Below are positions 51,839-56,948 of a stretch of 64,000 nucleotides of DNA, one piece after another. Below the pieces are notes generated by a model. That model saw only the letters and a list, made by a program, of their open reading frames with translations, was not told where the DNA came from and did no database searches. Within the stretch, counting starts at the first letter, position 1; each line of letters begins with the position of its first letter. Location: NCBI RefSeq assembly GCF_001468035.1, contig NZ_LNZA01000001.1:2148231-2212230 (forward strand), written 5' to 3'. The DNA comes from Legionella tucsonensis. Its GTDB lineage: Bacteria; Pseudomonadota; Gammaproteobacteria; Legionellales; Legionellaceae. Made by a program: the position numbers and the translations under genes.

Positions 51839-53272
51839 ATGATGATTAAACGTGAACAAGAAATGCTGGAACAGTTAGCAAAAACCTTAACAGACCAATT
51901 ATCTAAAGAAGCCCGTATCGATTTAGTGTTTTCTGCTCTTTTTGAACTGGATAAAATTCAAAAAGGTCAAACAATCCAACTTTCTAAAGTTCAGCTTGTA
52001 GAAGTAAATAGCGAAGTTACGACGCCAATAGTACTTAATCAAATTGCAGCTGCAGTAGAAACAGATAATGCGGATATAAAAGTGGTTAGAAGCATAATCA
52101 CTCAAATAATGAGAGCGCCTGAAGCTTTTGGCTTAAGCAGAAAAATGCGTTCTTTTTTTCTTCCCTATGCTGAAACCTTCATTGCTTCTAAAGGTGAAAT
52201 GATAGATCATGAAACCGATCTCGTACTGTTGTACCAACGAGATTGGATGACAAGAAAAGTACTTTCCATCGAAGATTTAGGTGCAAACGCAGAAGACGCG
52301 CAAATATTTGTTGATGCGTTAAGAACAGGAAATTATGCGATTACCTCAAAATTTGCCCGCTGGGTAGCCAAAAAATACAGCGATGTGAAATTAAACCCCG
52401 AACATAATTTTATAGGTGCAGAAGATATTTTTCCACTTGTTGCCTATGAGTTGGTGCAAACTGATATTCGTGCAGCAGATATGGCTTCTATTATGTACAT
52501 GTATGATCATACTACAGAAGATAATCAATATACTGCCTCCCTTATGTTTTCGGGAGTACAGACTTCGCTTAATCGACAATCAGCACTTCAAAGAGCGCAT
52601 GCAAAAGACAGTCCATCACAAATTTTGACGAGAATGCGCACAGAACATAAAGATTTCTTAAAAAAGGAAAATCCTGTCCGAAGTTTGATTAAAGAAGGGA
52701 TATCCTATGATCCTGAAATAGATTCGGTTGATCTAAAAGAACATTATAAAGAGAATCAAATCACAGCTTTTGCAAAAAGGAACAGAGATTCTATTACGAC
52801 TAATTTAATCATATTGAATATCAAAGGTGCTAGCCCCGAAGATATTAACACCTTATTAGCCATCAAAAAATATATCATTCAATACATTAACTACACAGAA
52901 GCCAATCCCCCTGAGAAGCCACAACAAACCTACATAAACCGCTTAAAAGCAGCGGAGGAGATGCTCGAGATACTTCAAAAAGGCGGAACAATAAAAGATG
53001 ACATCATTCCAGGAATAAAAACTCAAGCAAGTATCATTGCAAATAGTAAGCCAGGCTTAAGAGAATTGGGTTTTTTAGGTTGGTTACATAGCTTGACAGA
53101 TAACCATAAGCCCCAAACGTGCATAGAAACCTACGAAACCCTAAAAGCCATTGATTCAATTGTAGCGTCCAAAGTGAGCGAAATATCCAAAGAAAACCCA
53201 ATCAAGCAAATGAATCAAAATTCTCCTCCTGGTGATAAGCTTAGTAATACACATGCAATACAATATCCCTAA
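51839..53272 (+). CDS. VPS9-domain-like protein (Rab5-family GEF fold), candidate effector
   Basis: 477 residues, soluble. Residues ~125-245 match the VPS9 pattern: FIGAEDIFPLVAYELVQTDI, then MASIMYMYDHTTEDNQYTAS. Compared with remembered Rabex-5 (GADDFLPVL ... GEAGYYFT), the catalytic Asp is D196, the Pro P199, the Tyr Y231, and the Thr position is S234. In eukaryotes VPS9 domains load GTP on Rab5-group GTPases. A helical domain precedes it and a 230-residue unrecognised C-terminal part follows. AAGG is close to the ATG. Translocation to the host is inferred from the eukaryote-like domain; no close bacterial role is known to me. Confidence 0.8.
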   Translation: MMIKREQEMLEQLAKTLTDQLSKEARIDLVFSALFELDKIQKGQTIQLSKVQLVEVNSEVTTPIVLNQIAAAVETDNADIKVVRSIITQIMRAPEAFGLSRKMRSFFLPYAETFIASKGEMIDHETDLVLLYQRDWMTRKVLSIEDLGANAEDAQIFVDALRTGNYAITSKFARWVAKKYSDVKLNPEHNFIGAEDIFPLVAYELVQTDIRAADMASIMYMYDHTTEDNQYTASLMFSGVQTSLNRQSALQRAHAKDSPSQILTRMRTEHKDFLKKENPVRSLIKEGISYDPEIDSVDLKEHYKENQITAFAKRNRDSITTNLIILNIKGASPEDINTLLAIKKYIIQYINYTEANPPEKPQQTYINRLKAAEEMLEILQKGGTIKDDIIPGIKTQASIIANSKPGLRELGFLGWLHSLTDNHKPQTCIETYETLKAIDSIVASKVSEISKENPIKQMNQNSPPGDKLSNTHAIQYP

Positions 53273-53367: not shown

Positions 53368-53396
53368 TTGTACTTCTTATATCGTTCAACTATTAT
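53368..53396 (+). promoter_or_regulatory. Probable sigma-70 promoter of the RiPP operon
   Basis: TTGTAC (53368-53373) and TATTAT (53391-53396) are separated by exactly 17 bp, 59 bases before the precursor start codon. No metal-regulator box is recognised around it. Confidence 0.45.
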
Positions 53397-53454
53397 TAGG
53401 ATGCTGTTTCCTTGGCTGTTTAATTAGCTGTTTTTAAATATATGGAGATTGAAA

Positions 53455-53775
53455 ATGAATAAACGAAGCTTAATTATTGCCGCTACAGCTGCTGCGTTGT
53501 TTACTTCAGGCGCTTATTCCTCTTCTGCCCTTGACAGTAATAAGGCGAACACTAACTCCCCTACCAATCTAGCAAAGAACAATTGCAGTGGCAAAAACGG
53601 CTGCAAGGGTAAAAACGGCTGCAAAGGCAAAAACGGTTGCAAGGGCAAAAACGGTTGCAAGGGCAAAAATGGCTGCAAAGGTAAAAACTGCTGTAAAGGC
53701 AAGAACCATTGCAAAGGTAAAAACGGCTGCAAAGGTTCGAATAAATGCAAAGGAAAAAATAGCTGCAAGTCATAA
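53455..53775 (+). CDS. RiPP precursor: Cys-rich hexapeptide-repeat peptide (HvfA/bufferin-like)
   Basis: 106 residues. The ATG at 53455 has GGAG seven bases upstream. Residues 1-~23 are a Sec signal (SLIIAATAAALFTSGAYS), followed by a ~17-residue Ser/Asn linker, then about ten tandem hexapeptides of the form KGKNGC, with variants SGKNGC, KGKNCC, KGKNHC, KGSNKC and KGKNSC, giving 12 cysteines. Known HvfA/BufA precursors carry EGKCG motifs whose Cys are converted by an MNIO enzyme into copper-binding groups; here the spacing of Lys, Gly and Cys differs. The MNIO gene follows directly. A metal-binding role is inferred. Confidence 0.85.
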   Translation: MNKRSLIIAATAAALFTSGAYSSSALDSNKANTNSPTNLAKNNCSGKNGCKGKNGCKGKNGCKGKNGCKGKNGCKGKNCCKGKNHCKGKNGCKGSNKCKGKNSCKS

Positions 53776-53783
53776 TGTGTAAC

Positions 53784-53813
53784 GAATTGATGTCTTGCTT
53801 GAGACATCAATTC
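53784..53813 (+). promoter_or_regulatory. Hairpin between precursor and MNIO genes, likely attenuator or mRNA stabiliser
   Basis: A perfect 12-bp stem, GAATTGATGTCT (53784-53795) with AGACATCAATTC (53802-53813), starts nine bases after the precursor stop. No U-run follows, so it probably shields the precursor mRNA or causes partial termination, giving more precursor than enzyme. Confidence 0.6.
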
Positions 53814-53852
53814 ACCTCTAACAATAGATTCTCCCGTCTAGGAAAAAGACAG

Positions 53853-54734
53853 ATGGAAAAAAACACACAATACCAGCCTAAAAAATATTTGTCTCTTGGC
53901 ATGGGATTAGGTTTACGAGCGGAGCATTACAGTCATATTTTAGAACATACTCCGAAAGTAGAGTGGTTTGAAATCCTCACCGAAAATTATTTGGTGGATG
54001 GGGGAAATCCTCTTTATTATTTAGATAAAGTGCGTGAAAATTATCCTATTGTGATGCATGGTGTATCATTATCAATTGGGAGCACAGATCTTCTGAATCT
54101 TGAATATCTTAAGAGAGTAAAACAATTGGCAGACAGGATTCAACCCAAATGGATTTCTGATCACTTATGCTGGACGGGCGTTCATCAACGCAACATGCAC
54201 GATTTATTACCACTATCTTATACAGAAAAAACCATTACTCATGTTGTTGAACGAGTTAAATACGTACAGGATTTTTACCAGCAACAAATATTACTCGAAA
54301 ATGTATCCAGTTATATCACATACAAAGAATCTGAAATGACTGAATGGGAGTTTCTCTCTGAAATAGCCAATCGTGCAGATTGTTTCATTTTATTAGATTT
54401 AAATAATATTTATGTAAGCTCATATAATCATGGCTTTGATCCTGAAACCTATTTACAAAATATCCCGGTTGATCGCGTTCAACAATTTCATTTAGCAGGA
54501 CATCAAAATTGTGGTGATTACATTATTGATACACATGATCATCCAGTCATAACAGAAGTCTGGGGCCTGTACGCCCAAGCGATTAAACGCTTTGGTAACA
54601 TATCAACGATGATTGAGCGTGATGATCGTATTCCACCGTTTGAAGAGTTATGGCAAGAATTAGAATATGCAAAAGCAATAAAGCATAGTTGTTTATTGGA
54701 TGAAAAAACGGATTTAGCATATGAAACTTACTGA
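53853..54734 (+). CDS. MNIO (DUF692) RiPP-modifying oxygenase, HvfB/BufB/MbnB-like
   Basis: 293 residues from the ATG at 53853 (AGGAAA upstream). A frame open back to an ATG overlapping the precursor stop at 53775 would cross the hairpin and is less likely. TIM-barrel multinuclear iron enzyme; expected metal-ligand motifs are seen in order: MGLGLRAEHYSHIL, FEILTENYL, VMHGVSLSIGS, WISDHLCW, LLENVSSYI, FILLDLNNIYV, QFHLAGHQN, DTHDHPV and MIERDDRIPPF. The family oxidises Cys residues of partner peptides to oxazolone/thioamide or thiooxazole groups. Overlaps the next gene by 14 bp. Confidence 0.92.
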   Translation: MEKNTQYQPKKYLSLGMGLGLRAEHYSHILEHTPKVEWFEILTENYLVDGGNPLYYLDKVRENYPIVMHGVSLSIGSTDLLNLEYLKRVKQLADRIQPKWISDHLCWTGVHQRNMHDLLPLSYTEKTITHVVERVKYVQDFYQQQILLENVSSYITYKESEMTEWEFLSEIANRADCFILLDLNNIYVSSYNHGFDPETYLQNIPVDRVQQFHLAGHQNCGDYIIDTHDHPVITEVWGLYAQAIKRFGNISTMIERDDRIPPFEELWQELEYAKAIKHSCLLDEKTDLAYETY

Positions 54735-55491
54735 ATTACATACTTTACTACAAGACTCTATTCTTACCTCTAAACCACTCATTAATCCTTATCTTGATTT
54801 TCCACCTAAAGGATCTATTGCGGACAGAGTGGCTATCTATGCCAATGGCTTTTATGCGCGACTAGAAGAAGCATTAATGAGCGACTATAGTACATTAGCC
54901 GAGGTAATGGGTGAAAATAAATTTAGCCAAATGAGTCAAAGTTATACTCATGCGTACCCATCATATAACTACTCACTTAATAATTTTGGGGAAAACCTCA
55001 GTCAATTTTTAACTGAAACTTTACCCTATAAGAAAAAAAACCATTTAGCTGAAATTGCTGTATTTGAATGGGCTGAATATCAAGCCCTTGTAGCTCGTGA
55101 TGCAAATTTATTATCTGTTGCTGATTTGCAATCTTTGCCATTAAGTCAATGGCCAGAAATGAAATTCCATCTGCATCCGTCATGTAAAATACTTACGATG
55201 CACTGGAATAGTCTTTCTCTTATTAAAGCATCACGTAGTAATAAATCCATTCCTGCCCCAAAAAAACTTAAAAACCCACAATTCATAATGATCTGGCGTC
55301 ATCAACTTGAAGTACGATACCGTAAGCTAGAATATTCAGAACTAACCATGCTAAATGCAATAATACAGGAAGCATCATTTATCAATATTTGTGAGATGCT
55401 AAGCCATCAGATGCCTGAAGATGAAGTTGCAAGTTATCTTGTAAGAGAATTACATGCATGGATTCAAGAAAATTGTCTTATTAAGCGATAG
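54721..55491 (+). CDS. DUF2063 partner protein of the MNIO enzyme (HvfC/BufC-like)
   Basis: 256 residues. The N-terminal domain has the family pattern: LLQDSILT, then RVAIYANGFYARLEEALMSDYSTLAEVMG, then YSLNNFGENLSQFL. In MNIO systems this protein pairs with the enzyme and delivers the precursor. The C-terminal half is the usual less conserved region. Overlapping start with the MNIO gene implies a fixed stoichiometry. No DoxX-type membrane gene follows, unlike some related operons. Confidence 0.9.
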   Translation: MKLTELHTLLQDSILTSKPLINPYLDFPPKGSIADRVAIYANGFYARLEEALMSDYSTLAEVMGENKFSQMSQSYTHAYPSYNYSLNNFGENLSQFLTETLPYKKKNHLAEIAVFEWAEYQALVARDANLLSVADLQSLPLSQWPEMKFHLHPSCKILTMHWNSLSLIKASRSNKSIPAPKKLKNPQFIMIWRHQLEVRYRKLEYSELTMLNAIIQEASFINICEMLSHQMPEDEVASYLVRELHAWIQENCLIKR

Positions 55492-56455: not shown

Positions 56456-56504
56456 GTTATGTACGCATCAGTAAACACTTTGCTATGTCGATAGGGAGAT
56501 TGCA

Positions 56505-56948
56505 ATGTCGAAAAGAAAAAAATAAATCCAGCCCTGCAGGGTGGGACGCTCATGGAGCGTTTACCTGGGGTTTATTAGATAAACTTCTTGAATCAAAGTT
56601 ATTTACTATCGAAGGTATTTCCGCAACCAGTACCAGAAGTATGAATGCAGCTGAAATTGATGGAGAGTTTTATTGGGATGGAGGATATTTGGGGAGTCTT
56701 GCTATTTTCCCTTTAATTTATCAAACAAGTTGTAGAGATATCTTGACGAAAATTTGCGTGACTTCCCGCTTTCAACCGTCTATTCTCCTGATTGGGAGTT
56801 TTTAATAACCCTGCGTGATTTGAGGAGACAGGAAGCAAGCTATAGGATTGAAAAGAATTACGACAATATTGGAAAAAAATCCACTATTGATTTTACTGAA
56901 TGGTTATCAGGAAAAATATTTACTACGAAGTACCTTTCCGAGGGATAA
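56505..56948 (+). pseudogene. Broken patatin-like phospholipase gene (PatD-type)
   Basis: Starts at an ATG with GGGAG upstream: MSKRKK then a stop caused by slippage in an A-run. Shifted frames then give pieces of a patatin: LQGG before the break, AHGAFTWGLLDKLLESKLF, IEGISATSTRSMNAAEID (the GxSxG nucleophile elbow is altered), then DGEFYWDGGYLGSLAIFPLI with the DGG motif, and in a third frame SPDWEFLITLRDLRRQEA and a C-terminal tail. Much of the middle is missing. At least three frame changes plus a deletion make it non-functional. Cotranscription with adc is likely. Confidence 0.85.

What the first reader, a model, noticed from the sequence alone, without database searches (positions are those of the whole stretch)
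53368..55491. RiPP metallophore-like operon with a KGKNGC-repeat precursor
A Sec-exported peptide with about ten tandem Lys-Gly-Lys-Asn-Gly-Cys hexapeptides and 12 cysteines is followed directly by an MNIO (DUF692) enzyme and its DUF2063 partner. MNIO systems with this layout (HvfABC, bufferins) modify Cys in EGKCG motifs. Here the motif differs: Glu is absent, Asn lies between Lys and Cys, and Lys follows Cys. This may be a new precursor class with a different modification or metal preference. A TTGTAC-N17-TATTAT promoter sits in front.
Basis: partly seen in the sequence, partly recalled or inferred. Interest (0 to 1): 0.85.

Follow-up and report, generated by a model that had tools for sequence, protein, structure and literature searches.

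The report
Repeat-expanded bufferin operon in Legionella
A Legionella operon makes a small exported protein built from repeated cysteine-lysine units next to the two proteins that would modify it; it looks like a stretched-out relative of known copper-binding bufferins, in which the number of metal-binding units has been free to grow and shrink between species.

Summary
The "new class" reading needs correcting. Against EGKCG (HvfA) the motif looks alien, but read as C-K-G-x-N-x it is the repeat core of Buf2/BufA2 bufferins ("Cys-Lys" captophorins). The MNIO passes NCBIfam's bufferin-maturase cut-off and carries the Asp reported for Cys-Lys enzymes. The architecture is what is unusual. Canonical Buf2 precursors have Cys spacing 6-6-7-6-13; this clade has open-ended hexad arrays without the C-terminal tail and fails the BufA2 cut-off (36.6 against 60 bits). 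Among 143 Legionellaceae genomes 20 have the array-type MNIO, one clade; all 19 with a readable upstream region have the array gene before it (18 with 10-24 Cys, one shrunk to 4). The signal peptide is about as constrained as the enzyme, and a covarying hairpin separates precursor and MNIO genes in 16 of 19. Most likely it is a multi-site thiooxazole copper buffer of the Buf2 lineage, capacity tuned by repeat number. Modification and metal are untested.

The parts
53368..53396 (+). promoter-like TTGTAC-N17-TATTAT with conserved TCA-N-C before the -10
   Evidence: TTG-N15-TCA-N-CTA-N3-TT in 18 of 19 array operons; only place without mismatch in the own genome
53444..53448 (+). ribosome-binding site GGAGA of the precursor
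   Evidence: sequence; a GGA block is aligned at this place in all 19 orthologs
53455..53775 (+). precursor gene, 106 aa, 12 Cys, hexad array (array-type Buf2-like)
   Evidence: BufA2 model NF050166 36.6 bits, cut-off 60
53455..53520 (+). Sec signal peptide region (residues 1-22, cleavage site inferred by eye)
   Evidence: sequence; core pN/pS 0.12 against 0.44 for the linker, 10 orthologs
53584..53772 (+). hexad array C-K-G-x-N-x (Cys44 to the C-terminus)
53784..53813 (+). intercistronic RNA hairpin, 13 bp in this sequence
   Evidence: z -3.82; 11-bp core stem paired in 96.6% of cells, 6 of 11 pairs with change on both sides, 16 sequences
53853..54734 (+). MNIO (MbnB_TglH_ChrH, bufferin maturase type, Cys-Lys signature ERD-Asp258)
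   Evidence: PF05114 374.2 bits; NF050167 383.7 bits, cut-off 310; alignment to 3bww
54721..55491 (+). partner protein, DUF2063 + RRE fold (PME-type 1)
   Evidence: PF09836 54.2 bits; model pLDDT 89.8; Foldseek best hit 3dee E 1.3e-6

Best explanation
A captophorin (bufferin) operon of the Buf2 / Cys-Lys lineage with an expanded substrate. The precursor is made in the cytoplasm, and its signal peptide probably doubles as the recognition element for the MNIO-partner complex. The MNIO converts the array cysteines, probably to 5-thiooxazoles with loss of 4 Da each. The protein then goes through Sec to the periplasm and binds copper as a multi-site buffer. Repeat number sets capacity and drifts by gain and loss of 18-bp units. 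The hairpin after the precursor gene probably keeps precursor output above enzyme output. Shown here: gene order, family placement, array architecture, one-clade association, constraint on the signal peptide, conserved promoter, covarying hairpin. Inferred from characterised relatives: thiooxazole chemistry, periplasmic location, copper buffering, signal peptide as leader. Inferred from position alone: the hairpin's role.
For: MNIO_BufB 383.7 bits, cut-off 310. Asp at the site that in 3bww is Phe (ERD-D258 against ERD-F) and a single Arg where 3bww has two, as the logos of Cys-Lys MNIOs are described in PMC13097082 (passages); FonB itself was not aligned. Hexad consensus shared with canonical Buf2. 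A 7-residue spacing like the canonical 6-6-7-6 survives in 4 of 11 array orthologs, e.g. CKSDHNSCKG against CKTADNACKG. Arrays stand before the array-type MNIO in 19 of 19 readable cases, one clade, SH-aLRT 99. Signal-peptide core pN/pS 0.12, linker 0.44 (10 orthologs), MNIO 0.12 (10 orthologs). Partner fold matches 3dee and chain A of the TglHI complex. Hairpin. [quoted passage not shown]
Against: The precursor fails the BufA2 model cut-off and lacks the 13-spaced last Cys and tail. Of 24 genomes with an array gene, 4 lack an intact array-type MNIO (G011 broken, G129 a 39-residue remnant, G134 and G135 only an MNIO of the lower-scoring group). G021's array has shrunk to 4 Cys, only one followed by Lys. 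The Asp signature is not universal: some canonical loci read EWDF, ERDA or ERDG there. A later sentence of PMC13097082 says the second Arg is conserved only in Cys-Lys MNIOs, which contradicts its own description of the logos; I take it as a slip. No metal regulator was among the seven neighbouring window proteins scanned. No measurement of modification or metal exists. The signal peptide of canonical Legionella BufA2 is less constrained (0.26, 13 sequences), and no unrelated signal peptide was measured as a control.
Confidence: 0.72

Rival explanations
1. The array is an unmodified, metallothionein-like Cys/Lys-rich exported protein, and the MNIO beside it acts on another precursor such as the canonical BufA2 elsewhere in the genome.
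For: Array genes exist without an intact array-type MNIO in 4 of 24 genomes. The precursor is predicted unstructured (pLDDT 38.9).
Against: The array-type MNIO has an array before it in 19 of 19 readable cases, while the canonical BufA2 in the own genome has its own MNIO and partner (L001). The signal peptide is about as constrained as the enzyme.
Confidence: 0.13
2. The array-type MNIO installs a modification other than thiooxazole, or uses the conserved Lys or Asn, with another metal preference.
For: Lys +1 (93%) and Asn +4 (85%) are more conserved in arrays than in canonical Buf2 (64%, 66%). MNIOs of other clusters act on Asp, Asn or Phe (PMC12452194, section 21).
Against: The enzyme is 57-63% identical to the canonical-type MNIOs of the genus, shares their active-site signature, and scores as an ordinary bufferin maturase. 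Only precursor, MNIO and partner are kept in all 9 named neighbourhoods compared.
Confidence: 0.1
3. A decaying paralog: repeat slippage in an operon under relaxed selection, with no present function.
For: G011 broken copy, G129 MNIO remnant, G021 array down to 4 Cys; at E 1e-8 no array is found in 119 of 143 genomes.
Against: MNIO pN/pS 0.12; conserved promoter (three genus groups) and compensatory hairpin changes (two genus groups); the window's copy is intact.
Confidence: 0.05

Closest known systems
Buf2 / BufA2 bufferins (BUF_6/12Cys; Cys-Lys captophorins), e.g. C. vibrioides BufA2B2C2; L. pneumophila subsp. fraseri has two (PMC12452194)
   Same: Gene order A-B-C, Sec signal peptide, CKGxNx hexads, MNIO with Asp at the specificity site, DUF2063-RRE partner
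   Different: Spacing 6-6-7-6-13 with a C-terminal Cys tail replaced by an open hexad array without tail; 10-24 Cys (4 in one shrunken case) instead of 6 or 12; below the BufA2 model cut-off
HvfA / oxazolin, fontiphorin, gonophorin (Lys-Cys, EGKCG repeats)
   Same: Tandem Cys repeats, MNIO plus PME-type 1, exported
   Different: Lys precedes Cys and Glu is part of the repeat there; 0 EGKCG-type motifs in 18 arrays; MNIO has Asp where theirs is reported to have Phe; HvfB model 269 bits, cut-off 360
Buf1 / DUF2282 bufferins (gig operons; L. pneumophila lpg2105-2108, induced by Cu and Au, PMC5413113)
   Same: MNIO + DUF2063, exported Cys precursor; a DUF2282 operon is present in the own genome (L004)
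   Different: No DUF2282 match in the array precursor; the MNIO of the own DUF2282 operon is 41% identical; no DoxX among the neighbours scanned
12-Cys Buf2 (duplicated 6-Cys domains, e.g. Marinicella L083, Parashewanella L093)
   Same: Twice the Cys of ordinary Buf2
   Different: Whole-domain duplication 6-6-7-6-13 twice, not a hexad array

Membership tests
MNIO bufferin maturase (BufB) | NF050167 score above 310 | tested here: met
   383.7 bits
MNIO superfamily | PF05114 above cut-off 25 | tested here: met
   374.2 bits
PME-type 1 partner | DUF2063 domain plus RRE-type fold | tested here: met
   PF09836 54.2 against 27.2; model hits 3dee E 1.3e-6 and TglHI; NGO1945_C 17.6, below cut-off 27
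Buf2 / BufA2 precursor | NF050166 score above 60 | tested here: not met
   36.6 bits, match ends at model position 61 of 79; 5 other arrays score 25.0-52.8, own canonical BufA2 84.4
Buf2 / BufA2 precursor | 6 (or 12) conserved Cys, canonical spacing 6-6-7-6-13 | tested here: not met
   hexads only, no 13-spaced last Cys
Cys-Lys captophorins | multiple Cys-Lys motifs in the precursor | tested here: met
   10 of 12 Cys
Cys-Lys captophorins | Asp at the FonB-Phe250 site, loss of the second Arg in the MNIO | tested here: met
   ERD-D258 and LRA against ERDF and YRRD in 3bww; FonB itself not aligned
captophorins | 5-thiooxazole on Cys | not testable with these tools
   needs mass spectrometry and NMR
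HvfA / oxazolin | EGKCG repeats | tested here: not met
   0 in 18 arrays
Buf1 | DUF2282 domain | tested here: not met
   no DUF2282 match among Pfam hits of P0001 at E up to 1
bufferins | Sec signal peptide | tested here: inconclusive
   n-, h- and c-regions clear by eye; no signal-peptide predictor at hand
adjamnio-3 (PMC12452194) | MNIO of their network cluster 3, unstructured exported precursor | not tested
   their alignments are in supplements that could not be opened (section 17 read)

The most novel reading that the evidence does not exclude
The array operon is a modular substrate system. The enzyme pair recognises only the signal peptide and then works along any number of C-K-x-x-N-x units without a C-terminal tail. 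The product is a periodic metal-binding polymer whose capacity evolves by unit gain and loss, possibly with a modification or metal different from copper-thiooxazole.
Probability: 0.2. Interest if true: 0.7.

Novelty: new variant of a known kind. Interest (0 to 1): 0.48.

Why it matters
How MNIO complexes recognise exported substrates and how they process many sites are open questions (raised in the Discussion of PMC12452194). This clade offers a natural length series of 4 to 24 Cys on a closely similar signal peptide and enzyme. The tail that canonical Buf2 precursors keep has been lost. That makes leader recognition, processivity and capacity-against-length directly testable. It also shows that a curated precursor model misses a variant found in 24 of 143 sampled Legionellaceae genomes (six of these precursors were scored against the model).

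Tried and rejected
HvfA/EGKCG membership: rejected. A new class unrelated to bufferins: rejected (7-spacing relic). Collagen-like or adhesin hits of P0001 (PF01391 above its cut-off; Lcl): taken as composition matches of a Gly/Lys repeat. An operon of four with the acetoacetate decarboxylase gene: rejected as core, since that gene follows in 4 of 9 named neighbourhoods only. A regulon sharing the promoter: no second perfect copy in the own genome; 15 hits with up to 2 mismatches against 22 for the reversed control. Fold of the precursor: pLDDT 38.9, uninformative. Rfam: no hit in the window. Independent origin of the array in G214 (L175): the best tree puts its MNIO elsewhere, but the AU test does not reject one clade (p 0.315), so it is not claimed. 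A regex for a signal-peptide motif did not separate groups (12 of 18 arrays, 29 of 89 canonical). While checking this report I found that I had miscounted G021 as 5 Cys; it has 4, and the figures were mended.

Full report
What is there. The window carries, on the + strand, a 106-aa precursor (53455-53775), an MNIO (53853-54734) and a DUF2063 protein (54721-55491, overlapping the MNIO by 14 bases). The precursor starts with a signal-peptide-like stretch and a 20-odd residue linker, and from Cys44 on consists of hexads: 12 Cys, 10 of them followed by Lys, ten Cys-to-Cys hexads, five exact KGKNGC. At DNA level this is an 18-bp tandem repeat, 8.1 copies at 82%.

Family placement. The MNIO passes NCBIfam's bufferin-maturase cut-off (383.7 against 310) and fails the HvfB one (269 against 360); the precursor's best NCBIfam hit is BufA2, but below cut-off (36.6 against 60). 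Against 3bww, the Histophilus MNIO, the enzyme reads ERD-D where 3bww has ERD-F, and LRA where it has YRR; ERDD and LR are invariant in 12 orthologs. PMC13097082 (passages read) describes for Cys-Lys MNIOs an Asp in place of the Phe and loss of conservation of the second Arg. A later sentence there says the reverse about the Arg, and FonB itself was not aligned here. The partner's model (pLDDT 89.8) hits NGO1945 (3dee) and two TglHI entries as its only PDB matches with E up to 0.001.

Precursor architecture. In 89 of 122 loci examined a gene within 1.3 kb before the MNIO is a canonical Buf2 precursor with Cys spacing 6-6-7-6-(11 to 16); 19 have an array and 14 were not assigned (sequences). 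Canonical hexads read C-K(64%)-G(91%)-x-N(66%)-x; those of 18 arrays read C-K(93%)-[S 51%/G 44%]-x-N(85%)-x, and no EGKCG-type motif occurs. So Lys after Cys and Asn before the next Cys are Buf2 traits, not novelties. The arrays differ by open-ended length and by lacking the tail with the last Cys. Eleven genus orthologs have 10-15 Cys, with spacing 6 in 98 of 120 steps; the other steps are 5 (9), 1 (9) and 7 (4). A twelfth, G021, has shrunk to 4 Cys. Beyond the genus sample they reach 14 in L. nautarum, 18 in a Tatlockia MAG, 24 in L. maceachernii and 15-21 in four further genomes. The only 7-spacings, one in each of four orthologs, resemble the canonical heptad, which points to derivation from a Buf2 core.

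Association and history. In 45 genomes of the genus, 12 have an MNIO at least 79% identical to P0002, and each has the hexad precursor upstream; a thirteenth genome (G011) has a broken copy. In 143 Legionellaceae genomes MNIO scores split into 20 at 539 bits or more and the rest at 460 or less. All 19 of the 20 whose upstream region can be read have an array gene; G132 is cut by a contig end. Arrays are found in 24 of 143 genomes (26 hits at E 1e-8, less G030 and G059, whose loci show no array); 4 of the 24 lack an intact array-type MNIO. In a tree of 80 MNIOs, the 19 array rows plus the unreadable one form one clade (SH-aLRT 99; one change of label). In a sample of 369 genomes of the class, 8 besides the window's match the array profile at E 1e-8. 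Only one (L175) is a full array next to an MNIO. Two have spacing 6-6-6-6-13 (L176, L182) and one an internal duplication 6-6-7-6-7-6-7-6-13 (L180), possible intermediate forms; two are canonical (L178, L181) and in two no such gene was seen (L177, L179).

Regulation and expression. TTG-N15-TCA-N-CTA-N3-TT precedes 18 of 19 array genes; the canonical operons of the family have TTGAC instead in 21 of 22 aligned upstream regions. Between precursor and MNIO lies a hairpin (z -3.82). In 16 array operons its 11-bp core is paired in 96.6% of cells, with changes on both sides at 6 of 11 pairs (0 of 500 shuffles reach either figure; the count of further pair types is reached by 54 of 500), and slid controls pair 30-42%. 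Sixteen canonical operons have a different 9-bp hairpin in the same gap (97.9% paired, 2 pairs with double changes, reached by 2 of 500 shuffles). In three array operons (L151-L153) the stretch examined was only 13-42 bases and shows no such hairpin. In the window it has no run of U behind it, so I read it as a processing or stability element that favours precursor over enzyme; that is inference.

Constraint. Over 10 orthologs the 16-codon signal-peptide core has pN/pS 0.12 and the linker 0.44; over 10 the MNIO has 0.12. PMC12452194 (Discussion) reports preliminary evidence that the Buf1 signal peptide is part of what BufB-BufC recognises. The array precursors keep the signal peptide and lose the tail, which fits. 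Canonical Legionella BufA2 signal peptides are less constrained (0.26), and no unrelated signal peptide was tested.

Mechanism and novelty. Most likely: recognition through the signal peptide, thiooxazole formation on the array cysteines, Sec export, copper buffering with capacity set by repeat number. The chemistry and the metal are inferred from characterised relatives. Four papers were opened, none read whole: PMC12452194 (abstract, sections 13, 14, 17, 18 and 21, passages), PMC12668002 and its journal version PMC13097082 (passages), PMC5413113 (abstract, passages). PMC12452194 gives Buf2 precursors 6 or 12 Cys, and the passages found there with the word repeat concern EGKCG proteins or long precursors in general. 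Of the papers held, one contains the strings KGKNGC and CKGKNG, by its title on antibacterial peptides (listing only). I saw no description of Buf2 hexad arrays in these or in the listings. Supplementary data sets could not be opened, so arrays may be listed there. Verdict: a new variant of a known kind.

Noticed in passing
L048-L051, L054, L055, L058 (64-70 aa; e.g. L049:1480-1689): Another exported Cys-rich family in Legionella, with triplet GCKGCKGCNGC repeats. No MNIO is among the ORFs of at least 110 aa listed for these 3-kb loci. Several neighbours look by eye like short-chain dehydrogenases, and the one neighbour tested is DUF6969 (L049, 258.9 bits). BufA2 scores of two of them are 16-21 bits.
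   Followed up: partly
L001, L003, L004 (own genome): Three further MNIO loci in the same genome: a canonical 6-Cys BufA2 operon (L001), an MNIO followed by a partner-sized ORF without an adjacent precursor (L003), and a DUF2282 operon with DoxX (L004).
   Followed up: yes
window 51839-53272: Gene directly upstream encodes a protein with an Lpg0393 VPS9-like domain (45.4 bits), i.e. resembling a Legionella effector domain. Described only.
   Followed up: no
window 56485-56805: 106-aa ORF matching part of a 340-aa patatin-like protein of relatives (74%), so probably a truncated gene. Described only.
   Followed up: no
L202 and L211 (G134), L201 (G135), L205 (G132): Array-like precursors without an MNIO in the locus, two ending in CKxCKWRWTCKNI and one with alternating 5/6 Cys spacing.
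   Followed up: partly
L081:5462-5758: In a gammaproteobacterial MAG whose MNIO groups weakly with the array clade (SH-aLRT 80), a gene before the MNIO encodes a lipoprotein-like peptide with only 2 Cys and a KKHHHHH stretch.
   Followed up: no
L012 upstream of the precursor (G021): The 5' region carries four tandem copies of a CTTGGCTGTTTC-like unit; most close relatives have one or two GCTGTTT units there.
   Followed up: no
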